Positions 21,309 through 32,497 of a stretch of 64,000 nucleotides of DNA are shown in pieces. Origin of the DNA: Phycisphaerae bacterium (GTDB lineage Bacteria > Planctomycetota > Phycisphaerae > Phycisphaerales > SM1A02); the NCBI GenBank assembly GCA_002717655.1, contig PBAY01000014.1, positions 1-64,000 of the forward strand, read 5' to 3'. A program made the position numbers and the translations under genes. Position 1 is the first letter of the stretch. The number at the start of each line of letters is the position of its first letter. The notes below the pieces were generated by a model. That model saw only the letters and a program-made list of their open reading frames with translations. It was not told the DNA's origin and did no database searches.

Positions 21309-23093
21309 TCAGGCAGACTCGCTCTCCAGCTGACTGGTGATTTCGACCCAGTCAGGAAGTACTCGCATGATCTCCGGAATCATAAGTTCCAGAAATCCGG
21401 ACGCCAGTTCAACGAACTCATCAAGCGACATTTCCTTTGCACTGACCGCTGTAATCTGAACTTTGCAGAAATAGGCCTTCTTGTCCTGTGCCTTGAAGGC
21501 CAACATCTTCACACCACTGGGCTGCGGGGTAACTCGCCCGTTGGCAATGAAGAAATAACCAGCAAAGACCTGCAGTTGAGGCTGTTCAGGATCGCCGAAT
21601 TCAGTGGTACGAAGCTGCATGGAACCAACTGGCAATCGAACCAGCTCCGACTCCTCAGAACCACGATCAACCTTTGCAAGTCGATAGGACTGCCCATCAA
21701 GGGTGTGATCGGGATCGATCTCCCACTGATCCATCTCGATTCCAAGATCCAGATTCAGTGGTTCCGCCTGCTCCTGCGTCAACCCACCCGCCACAAGACA
21801 TCTATCTGGAACATGTGGAATCGTATCCAGATGACCCGTGTAATACGCAAGATGCAGCTGCATGGCCGGCACGTCCGGATCCTGCTCATTCACATATCTT
21901 CGTGTGAGATACAGATCCGTTCCCAGCTGTTCGACGCCGGCTTCATCCATACGAACTTCCTGACTCCTCGCCGAGGACCAGGGACCGACCATATAGGGAA
22001 TTGAATCGATCGCATGACGGGGGGGCACGGGATCCTTGCGAAGATGCACATCAAGTTCAACTGCCGCATATTGGAAACTGATCCCAGCTGCGATCAGCAC
22101 GACGACTGAAATCGTGAAAGCCAGTCGCGTACGATGATCGAACTGGATCTCGACTGGTTGCTCTGACTGAGGCTCCGATTCATCACCATCTTCCAGAACC
22201 AGATTCTTCAGAATCCACATGATGCCGAGATAGACGAAGAATGCTGGAATGAGCCAGAGCAATCCGACCATCGTGTGAAAATCGCCTGCTGCAAATCCAC
22301 TGTCGCGTGTCGAAAGAATGCCGAGTGTCATGACTCGAAGGATGTTCACGAATACTGCAGTTGGTACCGCAAGAATGACCAGTAGAACACGTTGCCAGAG
22401 ATGAGACATTCCGCTGTAGGCCATGGCCACACCCAGAGCAAGAAACGCGACGAGCATTCGCATGCCGGAACAGGCTTCGGCGATGTTCACTGGAACCAGC
22501 TCACCCATATGGAAGATCTGAAGCGTGTTGCCGGATCGCTCCACGTCGTAGCCAATCAAGGCGAGGCCGTAATAGGCGCCAGCGGCAGCAATATCCTGCA
22601 GTTGATAGGTGACGATCTCGAGAAATCGATCTGAGATCGTCTGGCCGAATACGATCAGGTAAAGCGTCGGAAACCAGAGCCATCTCATGGCTCGCCAGCC
22701 ACAGAAATACAGAACCAGTCCAATGAGGGTAAGGCCTGCACCAAATCCCATGATGTTGTGGTGCTTGAGCATCATCGGCCCAAGCGCACTGACGCTGTAG
22801 ATCGCCATGCCCATCAGAATCAGAAGCAAACCTGTCCAGGCAGGCTTGAATGGCTCAGCAAAGATCTTGCTTCGATTCAGATAGACGAACCATGCTGAAA
22901 TGAATGGAATGACAAGCGTGTGGCCCCAGTCCGCCTGTTCCTGAATGGCCCATTCAAACTGCCTCTGCAGAAACGCCCAGAACAACCACACAAAGATCGC
23001 CAGAATCGCCAGAAAGCTGCCGATCAGAATCGGCTTCGGACGAGAAGATCCGTCCGGCATTCGTGGAGCTGTCGAAGTTGGAGAGGTACTCAT
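21309..23093 (-). CDS. Exosortase fused to an EpsI domain
   Basis: 594 residues from the ATG at 23093; an in-frame TTG nine codons upstream is possible. About eight membrane helices carry the exosortase catalytic trio: Cys208 (AEACSGMR), Arg253 (VNILRV) and His273 (DFHTMVGL). After a further helix (about 323-340) comes an EpsI-type domain with YYTGHLDTIPHVPDRCLVAGG-like core residues 417-437. Exosortases cut and anchor PEP-CTERM-like C-terminal signals; EpsI is linked with exopolysaccharide production. No recognisable sorting substrate lies in the window. Confidence 0.93.
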   Translation of the reverse strand: MSTSPTSTAPRMPDGSSRPKPILIGSFLAILAIFVWLFWAFLQRQFEWAIQEQADWGHTLVIPFISAWFVYLNRSKIFAEPFKPAWTGLLLILMGMAIYSVSALGPMMLKHHNIMGFGAGLTLIGLVLYFCGWRAMRWLWFPTLYLIVFGQTISDRFLEIVTYQLQDIAAAGAYYGLALIGYDVERSGNTLQIFHMGELVPVNIAEACSGMRMLVAFLALGVAMAYSGMSHLWQRVLLVILAVPTAVFVNILRVMTLGILSTRDSGFAAGDFHTMVGLLWLIPAFFVYLGIMWILKNLVLEDGDESEPQSEQPVEIQFDHRTRLAFTISVVVLIAAGISFQYAAVELDVHLRKDPVPPRHAIDSIPYMVGPWSSARSQEVRMDEAGVEQLGTDLYLTRRYVNEQDPDVPAMQLHLAYYTGHLDTIPHVPDRCLVAGGLTQEQAEPLNLDLGIEMDQWEIDPDHTLDGQSYRLAKVDRGSEESELVRLPVGSMQLRTTEFGDPEQPQLQVFAGYFFIANGRVTPQPSGVKMLAFKAQDKKAYFCKVQITAVSAKEMSLDEFVELASGFLELMIPEIMRVLPDWVEITSQLESESA

Positions 23094-23162
23094 GAAGCGA
23101 TGGCCACCTGATTTCCGCAACCCTCACCCGTAATGCACCATTTGATCGCCCTCATGATCAGG

Positions 23163-24704
23163 CTAGAAACTGACTGGCGGCGGACCAAATACATCGTTGC
23201 CGAAGTTTCTGTCCAACAGAAACGCGAATCCATAATTCGCCCGCAGTCCATTACGAAGAATGGCCAGCGGATAAGCCAGGAAATTTGTTCCGATGATGAT
23301 GTGATCATTGGGCTTCAAATAGATATCTGGTTCAGTACGGCGACGAATGGCAGCGAGGTTCAGTCGAATTGTCGCTTCACGATGTTCTCCCACCTCACGC
23401 ACAAGATCCACCCGCTCAGGTATCGCCAGCGTGGCAAGTCCACCTGCTGCGGCAATGAGCCTACTCAAGGTCAATTCATTCGTTGTGGGAAGGTTGTAGA
23501 CACCTGGGCGAAGAATCTCGCCATCGATATAGACAATCCCTACAGGTGGACCTCCGATGTAGATCTGATCGGATGGGCGAATCACGATGTTGTAGCTGTT
23601 GTCGCCGTGTGACAGTTTCTGATACGGAATCTTGATTACCCGCTCAAGAACAAGATCCGGACTTGTGACACCTTGGGACTGAACTGCCTGAGCCACTTCA
23701 GGAGAACTGCTCTTGACCCTCACCCACTCCTTGCGTTCAGGCACATAGATGAAGGCATTGTCTGATGTGGGAATCTCAACCTTGCTTCCATTCAAATCAT
23801 CAACATCTATACCTTGAGGCTTCTGCGCCCTTGGGGTCATCACATCATCAATGTCAACAATTGGTTCATCCTGAGGCATCCAGGCCCCCGGGCTGGCAGT
23901 AGTCCGATTGTTGTTGAGCTGATTGATCAGAGACTCGATGTCTACAGCCTTGTCAGCGTCTGATCTGGAAGTGCTGCCGGATGCTGATCTTGGCTCACGT
24001 GAAACTGGTTCAGGCTTTTTCTCTCGTTCATAATGAGGAAGCAGCTCATCTGACAGATGAACTTGCCTGATCACATACACCCAGGTTGTACTCAGCGGAG
24101 GACCGCCTGCCATGGCCAGCGCATCGAGCAGACGAAGATTTGGATCCTGCAAGGTGAATCTGCCAGCCTGACCAATATGGCCATGGATGGTGTAGGTAAA
24201 TGCCCCGCCTTCCTGAAGGTCAACAGATACCGTTGGATTGACCGGCCCAACACCACTTTTGGCCAGATCACTCACCAGCTCATCCTTGAACTGCTGAGCC
24301 GTCATTCCAGCGGCACGAATCGGACCAATCTCCGGAATTGAGACATTGCCTGATTGATCAACACGCCTCGCGAACGGAAAGAACTCTCCCCGCTGATACA
24401 GCTCATAGATCTCAATCTGCAAGAGATCGCCGGGGACAATTCGGTAGGAGAGATCGCTGGGTACAAGATCAGCAGGCTCGACACTTGTGGTCTGTCCCCA
24501 AAGATCATCACCGGGTTCAATCGCGTCGATTCTTGTCAGAATCGGCATCGTGGTCGGGGTGAAGGTGAATCGACCTGTTCTTGAGGGATCAAAGAACGAA
24601 TTCACCTCACAACCAGCAGAAGAAAGGACCATCGCAAGGACAGCCAGTACCGAAATTATTCGGCATGGCGACACGCTCTGGGGGGCGTCTAGACGCCTCT
24701 TCAC
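23163..24704 (-). CDS. Wza-like polysaccharide export lipoprotein
   Basis: 513 residues. GTG start at 24704 supported by GGAG about eight bases upstream. A lipoprotein signal ends in VLSSAGC. A polysaccharide-export domain follows (YRIVPGDLLQIEIY; DQSGNVSIPEIGPIRAAGMT), then SLBB-type repeats (YTIHGHIGQAGRFTL; VYIDGEILRPGVYNLPTT). A low-complexity segment near 235-300 separates the two parts. First gene of the minus-strand exopolysaccharide operon; it should form the outer-membrane or periplasmic export channel. Confidence 0.92.
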   Translation of the reverse strand: MKRRLDAPQSVSPCRIISVLAVLAMVLSSAGCEVNSFFDPSRTGRFTFTPTTMPILTRIDAIEPGDDLWGQTTSVEPADLVPSDLSYRIVPGDLLQIEIYELYQRGEFFPFARRVDQSGNVSIPEIGPIRAAGMTAQQFKDELVSDLAKSGVGPVNPTVSVDLQEGGAFTYTIHGHIGQAGRFTLQDPNLRLLDALAMAGGPPLSTTWVYVIRQVHLSDELLPHYEREKKPEPVSREPRSASGSTSRSDADKAVDIESLINQLNNNRTTASPGAWMPQDEPIVDIDDVMTPRAQKPQGIDVDDLNGSKVEIPTSDNAFIYVPERKEWVRVKSSSPEVAQAVQSQGVTSPDLVLERVIKIPYQKLSHGDNSYNIVIRPSDQIYIGGPPVGIVYIDGEILRPGVYNLPTTNELTLSRLIAAAGGLATLAIPERVDLVREVGEHREATIRLNLAAIRRRTEPDIYLKPNDHIIIGTNFLAYPLAILRNGLRANYGFAFLLDRNFGNDVFGPPPVSF

Positions 24705-26482: not shown

Positions 26483-27337
26483 TCAGCCCGCTCGCCGGCT
26501 TCCAAGGCCACCACGTTCACGGAATGCTTCACGCAGTTGATGCAGTGCTGCCTGCTCGATCTGGCGAACACGCTCACGTGTCAATCCAACTTCACGCCCA
26601 GCTTCCTTGAGGGTTAATGGCGATCGACCATCGAGGCCGAAACGCATCCGGATCACTCTGGCTGACATCGGATCAAATCCAGAAAGAAGACCCCGCATCT
26701 TCTCCACATCTTCTCGCTGCTCCACGATGCTGGATGCGGTTTCGAAGAGATCGTCGGGCTGCATGTCGACATCACGGGAACTGACCTCATCGCCTTCCTT
26801 GGCACCCGTTGGTGCTGATTGCGTAGCTGCCAGTGTCATCTGAATGATTCGAAGCTTGCTTCGTGGCACGTTCATGGCATCAGCAAGTTCTTCCGCCGTT
26901 GGTGCACGATCAAGCTTTTCCTCGAGTTCCTTGATGGTGCGATCCCAGGCAGCCATACGCTGTCGCATGTAGGTCGGAACATGCAGGTGCTGACCATGCT
27001 CCATCACTGCTTGCTTGATGGTCTTGCGAATCCACCAGGTCCCGTAGGTCGAGAAGCGATGCCCGAGTGCAGGATCAAATCTCTCCACCGCCCTGATCAG
27101 ACCGATGTTGCCTTCATTGATCAGATCCTGAAGCGAGATTCCTTTGCGCAGATACTGCTTTGCAATACTGACAACGAGCCTCAGATTGGCCTGAATCATC
27201 TGCCGCTTGCAATCCATGCATTGATCGTTGATGACGCCCCAGGCAAGCTGACGCTCCTGATCTGCAGTCAACAGTGAAATGCGACTGATTTCATTGAGAT
27301 AAAGTTCGAGATCACTTCGGATATCGGTTTCTGCCAT
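26483..27337 (-). CDS. RpoD/RpoS-like sigma-70 factor
   Basis: 284 residues from the ATG at 27337 (GGGGTG about seven bases upstream). Regions are clear: 1.2 (DLELYLNEISRISLLTADQE), 2 (LRLVVSIAKQYLRKGISLQD; FSTYGTWWIRKTI), 3 (RAPTAEELADAMNVP) and 4 (LTLKEAGREVGLTRERVRQI). Region 1.1 and the large non-conserved insert of primary sigma factors are missing, so this is probably a group 2 alternative factor, although it recognises -10/-35 elements like RpoD. Confidence 0.92.
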   Translation of the reverse strand: MAETDIRSDLELYLNEISRISLLTADQERQLAWGVINDQCMDCKRQMIQANLRLVVSIAKQYLRKGISLQDLINEGNIGLIRAVERFDPALGHRFSTYGTWWIRKTIKQAVMEHGQHLHVPTYMRQRMAAWDRTIKELEEKLDRAPTAEELADAMNVPRSKLRIIQMTLAATQSAPTGAKEGDEVSSRDVDMQPDDLFETASSIVEQREDVEKMRGLLSGFDPMSARVIRMRFGLDGRSPLTLKEAGREVGLTRERVRQIEQAALHQLREAFRERGGLGSRRAG

Positions 27338-27513
27338 AGAACACCCCACGTACGGGTCGTACGAGGTCATTGATTGAATTCGAGGGGGAGAGATATCGGA
27401 GATGGAAGAGAGGAGACGTACGGATGAGTCGATCCGCTCCTCTGAATACGCGACCACCCATTCAGTGTTCGGCAGGGATTGAAAAAAGCGTTTTAAACCA
27501 CAATAGAGCCGAT

Positions 27514-29139
27514 TCAGGTCTTGTCAGCAGGCTCCGCCACAATCCCATCTTCCTTGGCACGTTTCTCGATATTGCCAAGGAAGACCTCGGCCAACGCTTC
27601 ATAAATAGCCTTCTTGCAGATCAGATGCGATGCTTCGTAGGCCATGATTGCAGACACCATCAGAGGTAGCGTGAGGAATCGAGCATCAGTCATTTCAATC
27701 ATGATGACGAAGACCGTAATAGGGCTCTGAACAACACCTGCGAAATACGCGACCATGAAGAGCATGATGACGATCTGCGGATCGATTTCATCAAAGATGT
27801 GCTCACAGAGATCGGCACACAGATTTCCAAGTCCTGCTCCAACTGACAGACTTGGATCAAACAGACCCCCGGGAATACCACTCACAAGGCTGAAGAAACT
27901 TCCGCCTGCCTTGGCAAATGGATACCACCAGGGATACCCCTCCGGGCGATGCCATTGATCGTAGAAAGCACGCTCATCAGGATTCCCGAGCACTTCCCAT
28001 GCCATTTCAATTTCACGGACTTCATGCTCAATCTCATCCGCACTTGTAAGAAGCGTTCGGTTCTCAACCTTGTCCTGGTACGCGGCAAAGAGCTCAGCGG
28101 TCGTGGCGGTCTGATCTTGACCAAGAACCTGATAGTAATCCGTACCGCGATACATCAGCATGGCCTTGGCCTGCGGATATCCACTTCCATAGGATTCGCC
28201 CTGACTGGCAAAGCCAATGCCAGCAAGAGACAGACCCAATACAGCCGCCGTGAGATACGGTCGGGTGCGCGCATGTCTTGTTACTACCGGCGTACCCCAA
28301 ACCACTGCTTTTGAGAATAGACCACCAAGCAGTCCGCCAACTACTCCTACGAGCGGAACAGCAACCCAGTGAACCATATGAAAGCCGAACTCACGTTCGA
28401 TCTTGCCATAGAAGAGGTAGTCCCAGCCCAGTATTGCAATGACCACGATGGAGGCGATCAAGACGACTCTGACGATGGTGCTCGCATTGTTCTTGTCGAA
28501 AGAACGTCCGATCTCCTCCATGGCAAAGATCATGCCTGCAATCGGCGCATTGAATGCTGCAGCAATTCCTGCCCCGCCACCTCCGAGTATCAGACCTCGA
28601 TGAACCAGATGCCGTGGGAATCTTGTGATCTTCGTAATCAGATACATGAAGCATGCGCCCACATGCACGGATGGTCCTTCTCGACCGATCGTCATGCCTG
28701 AGAAGAGGCCGATGCAGAGAAGAATGGTCTTCCCGATCAGGATCCTGCCCGAGAGCATGTAGGAACGAATCGGCCCATCCTTCACATGCAGTGATGCGAT
28801 GGCCTGAGGAATACCAGTGCCTTCGGTGCCGGGAAAGAATACATCCCTCAATCGCATGATCACGATCATGCTTACCGTTATGAGGACCATCCCGAGAATG
28901 ACACCCAGCGTCGGATCCATCTTCCAGCCGAGCCACTCATGCTGCCCTGTGAGGGCCTGAAAGAACTGAGTGCCCCAGTCATCGATTTCCTGAAAGAACA
29001 GGGCGAAGAGCCCCGTGAGACATGCTGCAGCGATGACAAGCAGATGTCGCCATGAGGCCGCCCAGGAGAAAACCGTAGATCGCCAGAAATTGGACTCATC
29101 CGGTTCCAGAGGTGGAAGAAATTTCGGTTCTTTCGACAT
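27514..29139 (-). CDS. ClC chloride channel/antiporter with an internal J-like domain
   Basis: 541 residues from the ATG at 29139. ClC motifs: GTGIP (107-111; Ser replaced by Thr at the anion site), GREGP (152-156; gating Glu present), FAMEEIG (Glu pair at 208-209, as in proton-coupled exchangers) and GGLFDPSLSVGAGLG (from 424). No CBS domains. Between the GSGYPQAKAML segment and the WWYPFAKAGGSFFSLVSG helix sits a soluble stretch, residues 334-397, with the helix pattern of a DnaJ J-domain but no HPD. Such an insertion is not part of the ClC plan I know. The frame is continuous, so it is not an assembly fusion of separate genes. Confidence 0.93.
   Translation of the reverse strand: MSKEPKFLPPLEPDESNFWRSTVFSWAASWRHLLVIAAACLTGLFALFFQEIDDWGTQFFQALTGQHEWLGWKMDPTLGVILGMVLITVSMIVIMRLRDVFFPGTEGTGIPQAIASLHVKDGPIRSYMLSGRILIGKTILLCIGLFSGMTIGREGPSVHVGACFMYLITKITRFPRHLVHRGLILGGGGAGIAAAFNAPIAGMIFAMEEIGRSFDKNNASTIVRVVLIASIVVIAILGWDYLFYGKIEREFGFHMVHWVAVPLVGVVGGLLGGLFSKAVVWGTPVVTRHARTRPYLTAAVLGLSLAGIGFASQGESYGSGYPQAKAMLMYRGTDYYQVLGQDQTATTAELFAAYQDKVENRTLLTSADEIEHEVREIEMAWEVLGNPDERAFYDQWHRPEGYPWWYPFAKAGGSFFSLVSGIPGGLFDPSLSVGAGLGNLCADLCEHIFDEIDPQIVIMLFMVAYFAGVVQSPITVFVIMIEMTDARFLTLPLMVSAIMAYEASHLICKKAIYEALAEVFLGNIEKRAKEDGIVAEPADKT
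27949..28140 (-). other. J-like domain inserted in the ClC transporter
   Basis: Encodes residues 334-397 of the ClC protein. It opens with DYYQVLGQDQ (J-domain helix I type), continues TTAELFAAYQDKVENR (helix II) and ends REIEMAWEVLGNPDERAFYDQW, which matches helix III and the NPxxRxxYD end of J-domains. The HPD tripeptide needed to stimulate Hsp70 is missing; the loop reads ENRTLLTSADE. It would lie in a loop of the channel. Confidence 0.75.
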
Positions 29140-29406
29140 GCTTGATTCGAGCTCGTTCCGGTACACACGGAGATTCCAATGAATTGGATCGTTGTCGATT
29201 TATACCGCGCCGACCCACCTGCTGACACAAGAGAGGTCGATCACCAGCCCGTTGGAACTTTTTTTCGACGTTTCTGAAAGAGTAGACATGGGTCCTGATT
29301 GTCCTTTGTGAACCACGACCCGCTGCCAGGGACGGCAGCTCAATAAGACTCTCTCTCCTCCTGGGACACCGCGTACGTGCGCGGCGTTCCAGTTTTTACA
29401 TCTGGA
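29140..29406. other. Intergenic region with two hairpins
   Basis: 267 bases between two minus-strand genes. A 6-bp perfect stem (GCTGCC/GGCAGC) lies at 29322-29339 and a GC-rich imperfect stem at 29363-29390 is followed on the plus strand by AGTTTTTA. The T run is on the wrong side for the minus-strand HdeD-like gene. The structure could end a plus-strand transcript or form part of a leader; I recognise no known RNA family. Confidence 0.35.
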
Positions 29407-30000
29407 TCAGCCTTCGATCACGGCAGCTGGTGGATTCGCCTGATTACCAGCATCGCCAAGCGCATTCCAGACCGCGAACAGCATGATGCTCATGAAGAAC
29501 AACTGGACGCCGAAGAGAAGCCCGGGAGCCCAGAGTGCATCTGAAGGCCACCAGATCACCAGCAGAATCGCAAGCACGATGCTGGCAATGCCACTGAACA
29601 TCTGCACGCCTGGCGCTACCTGATGACGTTGTGGAAATCCACTGAGATCCATCAAGCCACGAAGGAAGCACCAGACCGCGAGAACCAGGGTGACGATCTC
29701 CAGGCTTTCGAACGGCCAGGCCAGGAAGATCACACCAAGCCCGCCGATCAGAATCGCATTGATGAAATCCAGCGCCTTGGCGCCACTGCCCGCGGCAAAG
29801 CATCGGATGAACAACGCCAGACCACAGGCGATGGAGATCCATCCCATGAGCAGGATCAGGAACTTGGACGCGATGAGCGGTGAGATCACCGCGGCGAACA
29901 GACCGCAGAGAAGAAACAGGATGGCTTCAATGAGGATGATCCCTCGTGCTTCCCGCATACGGTCTAGATTGATCCAGTTGTTCATCGTTGCGGTTTCCAT
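29407..30000 (-). CDS. HdeD/DUF308-type membrane protein
   Basis: 197 residues; ATG at 30000 with GGAG ten bases upstream. Six hydrophobic helices arranged as three hairpins, with GIILIEAILFLLCGLFAAV at the start and PFESLEIVTLVLAVWCFLRG in the middle, typical of HdeD-like proteins. HdeD is tied to acid resistance in enterobacteria; elsewhere the role is unknown. No operon partner is evident. Confidence 0.8.
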   Translation of the reverse strand: METATMNNWINLDRMREARGIILIEAILFLLCGLFAAVISPLIASKFLILLMGWISIACGLALFIRCFAAGSGAKALDFINAILIGGLGVIFLAWPFESLEIVTLVLAVWCFLRGLMDLSGFPQRHQVAPGVQMFSGIASIVLAILLVIWWPSDALWAPGLLFGVQLFFMSIMLFAVWNALGDAGNQANPPAAVIEG

Positions 30001-30111
30001 GGGACTGATTCTCCGGCTCAAGTCAGGAAAGGAAGAGCGTGATCATGCAATGAACGAAGAATAGAGACCCAGCCATGCCTCTGCAAACCGACGGGAAGAT
30101 GGCGGACTTGA

Positions 30112-31944
30112 TCAATCATCCATCAGGTCGCATGAAATGATGTAACCGCAGTGGAAATCAACCTGCTGGCCTTCTGGGAAAGCCCCGGTACAGTTCCCAT
30201 TCTTGATACATTTGATCAACTCGACTGTAGAGATGCTATGGACCACGACAACCTCCGTGTCATCATCTCTCCAGAATTTGAATTCGATCTCAGCGGCCTG
30301 GTCGTTCATCCCCCATTGAAATTCGGCAGGTGGAATACGTTCCTCATAGGCTCCCCATGGAATGGAGATGGAAGACTCATGACCTGGGATTTTAATGGTG
30401 ACAGGACTGCCGCCGGGCAACCACCGGTAGTCTGGTCCAGTCCAATTCTCCATTGAGGTGATTTCCAGCACGAATTTTCGTTGTCTTTGATGATTCTGGA
30501 GCGAGCGGATTCCCTCGTCGAACATCCGAATCAAATCCTGCTGTGTTTCGTGACCATTTTCATCCGGCGACTGCCAACGCTGAACTGAATTCCTTCTACC
30601 AGTCCATGCTGTGATGAGGTTCTTACCCATTTTAAATGTAGGCGCATCCTCATACTCCTGCGATTCCTTGGAATACTTGACCTGATACTCATCGTTCTGG
30701 TCGAAGTCGAAATCACTTGGGATACTCGTATCCTTGTGGTCCACTTCGGCTTCAAGATCGCTGATAGTCTGATCGCGAAACTGAATTTCGTTCCGGGTGA
30801 TCAAAACAGTGGCGACCAATCCCGCCAATATCACCATCAGCAGGACAGCCATCGCCCGCGTTACCCACCCACTTTGGTCTGAATGAAACAACCATGAACA
30901 CCGGGGCGACCGCACCCTTCGCCCAAGCGTGGCGGCACTCTTCATCCTTCGCTCGGGATTCCAGTTCAACGCCTCTTCAATGGCTCGCAAGGTGAACAGA
31001 CGCCCTGAACAGAGATTGCCGCACCAGTTGAAACCTCTTCCGAAGACGGAAGACGCCAAAGTCGTGTTGTCGCCCGGGCTCCCCTTCATGTTCTGGAACG
31101 CCACCTCTCGGAGCATGCTGGATCGATTCTGATCGCTCAGATTCCAGTACCGCTGACCCGTCAGCATCTCGAATGCAACCAGGGCGATCTGAAAGAGATC
31201 ACTTGCGGAACTCGTCTCCCCCTTGAGAACCTCTTCGGGAACCTGATAGCCCGTGGTTCTGGCACCGCTCGAATGGCCCTGGGATGTGGCGATGCCGAAG
31301 TCGATCAGTTCCGGCTCGTCTTCCTTCTTGATCATGATGTTCGTGGGCTTCAGATCACAATGAACCATGTACCCTGCGGTCGCCTTCTCGATACGGGCCA
31401 GAATGCCACACAGCCGTCGGATCACCTTGAATCGTCGTAGATAGGAATGCGGCTGCTGCAACCAGACGTCAAGCGTCTCACCTTCGATGAAATCAAGAAC
31501 GATGAAATCATCGCCGACACGATGCACCTTGACGACACCCTCGATCGTCCCCAGTTCTCGAAGCGACTCGGCTTCACGCTTCAAGACATCACGAGAACCG
31601 GGCTTCAAGGCCTTGATGGCGACTGGGTGCCCGGTGGAGATCTCCTTGGCCCGGAAGACTTCTGAGAACCCGCCTTCACCAAGACGTTCCCCGATTCGAT
31701 AACCATCGATTTCGACTCCCTCGTACCACTTATCATGATCCACTTGATCACCCGGCAGACCGAAGAGATGCGCTTCGCAGGATGCCACGTCGCGTTCGGC
31801 TGAATCCAGCCTGGCCAGTTCAAGACGAACCGCTTCAACCAGTGATAGGTCGCCGCCACAAGCCGCTTCAAGATCGCTGCTGGACGGCGCTTCGGAGTGT
31901 TCAAGAAAGAGCTTCCTGGCAATGGTCCATGCGGATTCAGCCAT
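30112..31944 (-). CDS. Membrane Ser/Thr protein kinase with extracytoplasmic sensor
   Basis: 610 residues from the ATG at 31944, overlapping the ECF sigma stop by eight bases. Kinase domain about 80-345: Gly loop GEGGFSEVF, Lys111 (VAIKAL), catalytic HCDLKPTN (195-202; Cys in place of the usual Arg, so a non-RD kinase) and LIDFGIA (215-217). A membrane helix (about 362-383) and a coiled coil precede an outer domain of about 210 residues that I do not recognise. Coupling to a sigma factor gene suggests that the kinase relays an envelope signal to it. Confidence 0.9.
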   Translation of the reverse strand: MAESAWTIARKLFLEHSEAPSSSDLEAACGGDLSLVEAVRLELARLDSAERDVASCEAHLFGLPGDQVDHDKWYEGVEIDGYRIGERLGEGGFSEVFRAKEISTGHPVAIKALKPGSRDVLKREAESLRELGTIEGVVKVHRVGDDFIVLDFIEGETLDVWLQQPHSYLRRFKVIRRLCGILARIEKATAGYMVHCDLKPTNIMIKKEDEPELIDFGIATSQGHSSGARTTGYQVPEEVLKGETSSASDLFQIALVAFEMLTGQRYWNLSDQNRSSMLREVAFQNMKGSPGDNTTLASSVFGRGFNWCGNLCSGRLFTLRAIEEALNWNPERRMKSAATLGRRVRSPRCSWLFHSDQSGWVTRAMAVLLMVILAGLVATVLITRNEIQFRDQTISDLEAEVDHKDTSIPSDFDFDQNDEYQVKYSKESQEYEDAPTFKMGKNLITAWTGRRNSVQRWQSPDENGHETQQDLIRMFDEGIRSLQNHQRQRKFVLEITSMENWTGPDYRWLPGGSPVTIKIPGHESSISIPWGAYEERIPPAEFQWGMNDQAAEIEFKFWRDDDTEVVVVHSISTVELIKCIKNGNCTGAFPEGQQVDFHCGYIISCDLMDD

Positions 31945-32497
31945 CGGGACTGGCCCCTTCCTCAGGATCCAGTTCATGCAATACAAGGGCGAGTTGGCGA
32001 TGAATCCTGTCCAGGCGATCCCGGCCGGTCGACTCGGGAAGACCCAACTCCCGGAACACCTTGGTCTGCTCTTGATGCAGCATCTTGATTCTGAAGTAGA
32101 GCTGCCAGTCCTCGTCACCAAGGTCAACGACGGCCGCAGTCAACAGCTTCAGCATGTCGTCATCAACTACGCGTGTGAGGGATCCGCGTGGGTGCAGAAC
32201 GGGCTTTGGCTTCGACCCCTTCTCCATGTGAGGATCATCTGAAACCTGCTCTCTGGAAGACCTCTTCAATTCGCTGGCCAGCAGGTTCCGTGCGGAGACG
32301 CAGAAGTACTTGTAGAACTCTTCATCTGAAGCCGTATGCACTGGCCGCTTGCCTTCCAGAACGATCTTCAAGTACAGCTGATGAACATTCTCCGTGATGT
32401 CTGGATTGGGCTGACCATTGCGAAATGTCGCGACGATCGCCTTCAGACGCGGCTCCATCTCCTTGAACAAACGGTCTTCACGCGCGGTCAGTTCCAT
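31937..32497 (-). CDS. ECF-type RNA polymerase sigma factor
   Basis: 186 residues. Start at 32497 (MELTAREDRLFKEMEPRLK) has GGAG eight bases upstream; the open frame continuing beyond it is intergenic. Region 2 (DITENVHQLYLKIVLEGKRP; FYKYFCVSARNLLASELKR) and region 4 (LLTAAVVDLGDEDWQLYFRI; VFRELGLPESTGRDRLDRIH) match planctomycetal ECF factors that lack a classical anti-sigma and sit beside Ser/Thr kinases, as here. Confidence 0.8.
   Translation of the reverse strand: MELTAREDRLFKEMEPRLKAIVATFRNGQPNPDITENVHQLYLKIVLEGKRPVHTASDEEFYKYFCVSARNLLASELKRSSREQVSDDPHMEKGSKPKPVLHPRGSLTRVVDDDMLKLLTAAVVDLGDEDWQLYFRIKMLHQEQTKVFRELGLPESTGRDRLDRIHRQLALVLHELDPEEGASPDG

What the first reader, a model, noticed from the sequence alone, without database searches (positions are those of the whole stretch)
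27514..29139. ClC transporter with a J-like (DnaJ) domain spliced into a loop
The ORF keeps the ClC core motifs (GTGIP, GREGP, EE, GGLFDPSL), yet residues 334-397 read as a J-domain: DYYQVLGQ, a second helix TTAELFAAYQDKV, then IEMAWEVLGNPDERAFYDQW. The HPD tripeptide is absent, so it probably does not activate Hsp70 and may instead be a docking or gating module. I know of no described ClC with this insert; regulation in ClC proteins normally comes from CBS or TrkA_C domains at the C-terminus. It could couple anion/proton exchange to proteostasis or to an unknown partner.
Basis: partly seen in the sequence, partly recalled or inferred. Interest (0 to 1): 0.85.

Follow-up and report, generated by a model that had tools for sequence, protein, structure and literature searches.

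The report
Chloride exchanger carrying periplasmic J-like insert
A chloride/proton exchanger of marine Phycisphaerales bacteria carries, in a loop predicted to lie on the outer side of the membrane, a real but HPD-less relative of the DnaJ J-domain; it was gained once, is kept in at least 18 species, and probably serves as a built-in cap or docking surface rather than a chaperone partner.

Summary
The ORF lies on the MINUS strand (27514-29139, 541 aa) and encodes a ClC with an in-frame J-like insert at residues about 331-400. The insert alone passes Pfam's DnaJ cut-off (1.5e-7); all 18 orthologous inserts match DnaJ, and their profile finds solved J-domains at 2.9e-14. HPD is absent in all 18, replaced by [TPK]L[LI], and the insert is acidic. 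It is no assembly error: 17 other species loci carry it, while insert-free orthologues occupy the same locus beside a sigma-factor gene. A tree gives one gain in a marine Phycisphaerales clade (support 98). The insert is under purifying selection but evolves about three times faster than the ClC core. It lies between helices L and M, an extracytoplasmic loop in ClC proteins, and charge counts agree, so it most likely faces the periplasm, away from DnaK. Best reading: a repurposed J-fold acting as an integral periplasmic cap or docking domain of a Cl-/H+ exchanger, by analogy with OSTM1 on ClC-7. Fold, position, history and HPD loss are shown; function is inferred. No such ClC was found in the literature searched.

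The parts
27514..29139 (-). ClC-type anion transporter gene, 541 aa from the ATG (550 aa from an upstream GTG at 29166)
   Evidence: PF00654 E=4.8e-76; model pLDDT 81, pTM 0.84; best solved match 3nd0 Cl-/H+ antiporter, Z 44.6, rmsd 2.9 over 419 residues
27940..28149 (-). J-like insert, residues 331-400, between ClC helices L and M
   Evidence: position from alignment with E. coli ClcA and insert-free orthologues; J-fold by Pfam, PDB profile and Foldseek
27958..28140 (-). core match to PF00226 DnaJ, residues 334-394
28048..28056 (-). residues 362-364 TLL, where canonical J-domains have the HPD loop (the alignment has a one-residue gap here)
   Evidence: [TPK]L[LI] in all 18, never HPD
28678..28680 (-). 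E154 = external gating glutamate (EcClcA E148)
28513..28515 (-). E209 = internal proton glutamate (EcClcA E203)
28816..28818 (-). T108 at the position of EcClcA central serine S107
27601..27603 (-). Y513 = central tyrosine (EcClcA Y445)
26483..27457 (-). sigma-70-type factor gene directly downstream on the same strand; neighbour conserved with and without the insert
   Evidence: Pfam; found in 17 of 19 loci

Best explanation
This is a ClC-type, probably Cl-/H+-exchanging, transporter into whose extracytoplasmic loop between helices L and M a J-domain was inserted once, in an ancestor of a marine Phycisphaerales clade. The J-domain kept its fold core but lost the HPD motif and the basic character of helix II. 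It is most likely periplasmic and works as a structural or docking module: tethered at both ends near the outer vestibule, it caps the outer face and tunes or stabilises the exchanger, or binds a periplasmic partner. It does not recruit DnaK. Shown: fold family, position, absence of HPD, single gain, conservation. Inferred from homology: topology and exchange activity. Inferred only: the capping or docking function.
For: J identity. ClC fold and residues E154, E209, Y513. L-M position; that loop is extracellular (PMC10604815; PMC11962092, where a 163-residue tag placed between helices L and M of ClC-5 left it functional, with less current). Positive-inside: K+R per residue 0.190 in cytoplasmic loops, 0.043 in native outer loops, 0.097 in the insert, whose net charge averages -6.8. 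HPD absent in 18 of 18. Single gain, SH-aLRT 98. Insert dN/dS about 0.1-0.5 where computable. Invariant insert residues are largely J-fold consensus (D334, Y336, A345, A353, Y354, A380, L384, E389, R390, Y393, D394), plus the local R331, T333, L363 and W396. Analogy: OSTM1 covers the luminal face of ClC-7 (PMC7440919).
Against: Topology is by homology, not measured, and the insert's K+R density lies between the native outer and inner values. The insert evolves about three times faster than the core (mean dN 0.55 against 0.19), so it may be only weakly constrained. Model coordinates and PAE were not available, so packing on the vestibule was not seen. No partner protein was identified, and transport by this protein was not measured.
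Confidence: 0.62

Rival explanations
1. Near-neutral passenger: the L-M loop tolerates inserts, so a J-domain landed there and is kept only because it must fold without harming the transporter.
For: ClC-5 tolerates a 163-residue tag at the same loop; the insert evolves about three times faster than the ClC core; insert-free orthologues exist at the same locus.
Against: One gain and no loss among the 18 carriers on the tree, an invariant core that includes non-J residues R331, L363 and W396, and purifying selection.
Confidence: 0.22
2. Periplasmic partner-binding site: the J-fold is a receptor for a dedicated soluble or lipoprotein partner that regulates the exchanger, as TMEM9, Barttin or OSTM1 do for animal ClCs. 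This is a sub-case of the best explanation.
For: ClC accessory subunits bind extracytosolic surfaces; HPD-less J-like proteins work as subunits or binding partners in membrane systems, such as NdhU and CPP1 (PMC9407819).
Against: No candidate partner: the conserved neighbours (sigma factor, DUF308 membrane protein) also flank insert-free ClCs.
Confidence: 0.12
3. Cytoplasmic J-domain that recruits DnaK or a cytoplasmic partner.
For: J homology itself.
Against: No HPD in any of 18, acidic insert, and the L-M loop is extracellular in ClC proteins.
Confidence: 0.03
4. Artefact: assembly chimera or chance resemblance to a J-domain.
For: The carriers found in the named collection are all metagenome-assembled genomes.
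Against: Same junction in 17 other species loci, open frame throughout, clade-consistent tree, 18 of 18 Pfam hits.
Confidence: 0.01

Closest known systems
ClC-ec1 (E. coli ClcA) and Synechocystis ClC (3nd0), prokaryotic Cl-/H+ antiporters
   Same: Fold (Z about 43-45), external and internal glutamates, central tyrosine
   Different: Threonine instead of serine at S107; about 70-residue J-like insert in the L-M loop, absent from ClcA
J-domain of CbpA / T. thermophilus DnaJ2 (PF00226)
   Same: Helix I-IV pattern, DYY, AY and ER..YD motifs; nearest solved relatives by profile
   Different: No HPD; that loop reads [TPK]L[LI]; helix II no longer basic; inserted in a membrane transporter on the predicted periplasmic side
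HPD-less J-like proteins of membrane systems (NdhU, CPP1; Pam16 from general knowledge)
   Same: J-fold kept, HPD lost, structural or binding role at a membrane
   Different: Separate proteins in organelles; none is an insert in a ClC
ClC-7/OSTM1 and ClC-3/TMEM9 complexes
   Same: Extracytosolic domain on the outer face of a ClC (analogy only)
   Different: Separate beta-subunits with unrelated folds, not a J-fold built into the transporter

Membership tests
ClC (PF00654) | Profile match over the family cut-off and ClC fold | tested here: met
   256.6 bits vs cut-off 24.8; Z 44.6 to 3nd0
ClC Cl-/H+ exchanger subtype | External and internal (proton) glutamates | tested here: met
   E154 and E209 align with E148 and E203 of EcClcA
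ClC Cl-/H+ exchanger subtype | Measured coupled Cl-/H+ transport | not testable with these tools
   needs reconstitution
J-domain (PF00226) | Profile match over the family cut-off | tested here: met
   31.8 bits for the insert vs 27.8; 28.7 in the genome scan; 24.8, below the cut-off, when scored in the whole protein
J-domain (PF00226) | J-fold: helices II and III flanked by I and IV | tested here: met
   AlphaFold helices 335-339, 347-358, 372-385, 387-396; Foldseek top rows are J-domain chains with probability 1.00, though the best E is only 1.7e-3
Functional J-domain co-chaperone (Hsp40) | HPD tripeptide | tested here: not met
   absent in 18 of 18
Functional J-domain co-chaperone (Hsp40) | Same compartment as DnaK (cytoplasm) | tested here: inconclusive
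   homology and charge place it outside; no direct topology data
J-like (HPD-less) domain | J-domain-like structure without HPD | tested here: met
   definition as in PMC9407819

The most novel reading that the evidence does not exclude
A J-fold that has left the Hsp70 world and become a periplasmic gating lid or partner receptor built into a ClC exchanger, that is, an intramolecular counterpart of the animal ClC beta-subunits, evolved in bacteria.
Probability: 0.4. Interest if true: 0.75.

Novelty: new variant of a known kind. Interest (0 to 1): 0.58.

Why it matters
J-domains are defined by their work with Hsp70 in compartments that hold it; one kept across a clade on the predicted outer face of a bacterial transporter is a clear case of the fold being reused for something else. 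It also shows that the L-M loop of ClC proteins, where a large tag was tolerated in the laboratory, has been used by nature to add a domain. Insert-free orthologues at the same locus give a clean comparison for testing what such a domain does to an exchanger.

Tried and rejected
Assembly error: rejected. Viral carriers: two scans of viral contigs found none, so the structure prediction rests on 19 aligned rows. Literature searches for a ClC with a J-domain gave nothing relevant; the library holds open-licence papers only. Function from gene neighbours: the sigma factor and the DUF308 gene also flank insert-free ClCs, so they say nothing about the insert. Homologous inserts elsewhere in the phylum: of 392 genomes searched, one carrier outside the family appeared (G302, the same locus as L044). 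An independent J insertion in an unrelated ClC would not have been recognised by these searches. Packing of the insert on the ClC body could not be checked because model coordinates and PAE are not given out. A first attempt to extract proteins from the fetched loci took some on the wrong strand and was redone.

Full report
Observation. It matches Voltage_CLC at 4.8e-76. Residues 334-394 match the DnaJ domain PF00226 at 24.8 bits within the whole protein, just under Pfam's 27.8-bit cut-off, and at 31.8 bits (1.5e-7) when the insert is scored alone; TIGR02349 DnaJ_bact reaches 1.1e-8. A scan of the genome lists this place as one of three J-domains, over the cut-off at 28.7 bits; the other two keep HPD.

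Relatives. A search of 101 related genomes gave full-length matches through the insert in all six members of the genus and in one other genus, while matches in other genera of the family break near residue 330 and resume near 402. A scan of a collection of one genome per species (84,980 species) found 17 loci with the insert, all planctomycete metagenome-assembled genomes, and two loci that match only the flanks. In the family, 53 of 181 genomes have this ClC; 17 match without a break through the insert and 36 do not (for carriers not fetched as loci the insert is inferred from the unbroken match).

The insert as a J-like domain. All 18 inserts (window plus 17) hit PF00226, best 7.3e-11. Their profile finds T. 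thermophilus DnaJ2 at 2.9e-14 and many other J-domains, and aligns with the J-domain of a CbpA-like protein of the same genome with 98.4% probability. HPD is absent from all 18; at that place stands [TPK]L[LI], with L363 invariant. Other invariant residues are largely the J-fold core (D334, Y336, A345, A353, Y354, A380, L384, E389, R390, Y393, D394), with some that are not J consensus (R331, T333, W396). The insert is net negative in every species tested (-1 to -10, 17 sequences), and helix II is not the basic helix of Hsp70-binding J-domains (established knowledge). AlphaFold on the insert alone (18 sequences) gives pLDDT 76 with helices at the J-domain positions; Foldseek's best rows are J-domain chains with probability 1.00, although E-values are modest (best 1.7e-3). 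In the full-length model the insert region has block pLDDT of about 77-90.

The transporter. The full model (pLDDT 81, pTM 0.84, 19 sequences) matches the Synechocystis and E. coli Cl-/H+ antiporters with Z of about 43-45. Alignment with E. coli ClcA maps the external glutamate E148 to E154, the internal glutamate E203 to E209, Y445 to Y513 and S107 to T108. Both exchange glutamates are present, so Cl-/H+ exchange is the likely activity; it was not measured.

Where the insert sits. It replaces a short linker between helix L and helix M. In ClC-1 the L-M stretch is extracellular (PMC10604815), and in ClC-5 a 163-residue tagged polypeptide placed between helices L and M, described as an extracellular/luminal loop, left the transporter functional though with less current (PMC11962092). 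Charge counts over 18 proteins agree: K+R per residue is 0.190 in cytoplasmic loops, 0.043 in the native outer loops and 0.097 in the insert, with a mean net charge of -6.8 in the insert (loop borders set by hand from ClcA topology and the model). The insert is therefore most likely periplasmic.

History. On a tree built without the insert's columns, the 18 carriers form one group with SH-aLRT 98 (quick tree, 33 rows), consistent with one gain and no loss among them. The orthologues without the insert, L052 and L053, sit, like most carriers, directly before a sigma-70-type gene that is found in 17 of 19 loci. The insert is under purifying selection: dN/dS was about 0.1-0.5 in the pairs where it could be computed, against 0.02-0.2 for the core. 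Synonymous sites are near saturation, so these values are rough; mean dN is about three times that of the core.

Mechanism. Shown: a J-like fold, at this site, without HPD, gained once and kept. Inferred from homology: periplasmic side and exchange activity. Inferred only: function. Helix L begins at a conserved glycine-aromatic near the outer vestibule (Y321 here, aligned with ClcA F317; general knowledge of ClC-ec1), so a domain tethered a few residues further on could cover or crowd the outer entrance, or offer a surface to a partner. The closest analogy is OSTM1, whose luminal helical domain covers the luminal face of ClC-7 and protects it (PMC7440919). J-like proteins without HPD are known as structural or binding parts of membrane systems, such as NdhU and CPP1 (PMC9407819). 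I put about 0.6 on an integral cap or docking module, 0.2 on a near-neutral passenger, and very little on DnaK recruitment.

Known or new. No ClC with a J or J-like domain turned up in the open-licence literature searched or among the solved structures matched. It is a new variant of a known kind: a ClC with a new accessory domain, in a new place, from a known fold that has lost its defining activity.

Noticed in passing
26483-27457 (-) and loci L035-L053: A sigma-70-type factor gene directly follows the ClC gene on the same strand in 17 of 19 loci, with or without the insert; ClC and sigma factor look like a long-standing pair.
   Followed up: partly
29407-30021 (-): A DUF308 (HdeD-like) small membrane protein lies beside the ClC here and nearby in 15 of 19 loci, on varying sides; with ClC and sigma factor it hints at a stress or acid-response neighbourhood.
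   Followed up: partly
L044 8001-8309 (G302, contig C48): One carrier is assigned to another planctomycete family, lacks the usual neighbours, and is the only one of six genomes of that family with this ClC: horizontal transfer or a misbinned contig.
   Followed up: partly
28816-28818 (-): Threonine (T108) in place of the ClcA central serine S107, invariant in all 18 carriers.
   Followed up: no
21309-24704 (-): Exosortase (EpsH) gene next to a polysaccharide export gene, conserved in most related loci.
   Followed up: no
30112-32127 (-): Serine/threonine protein kinase of 671 aa upstream of the DUF308 gene.
   Followed up: no
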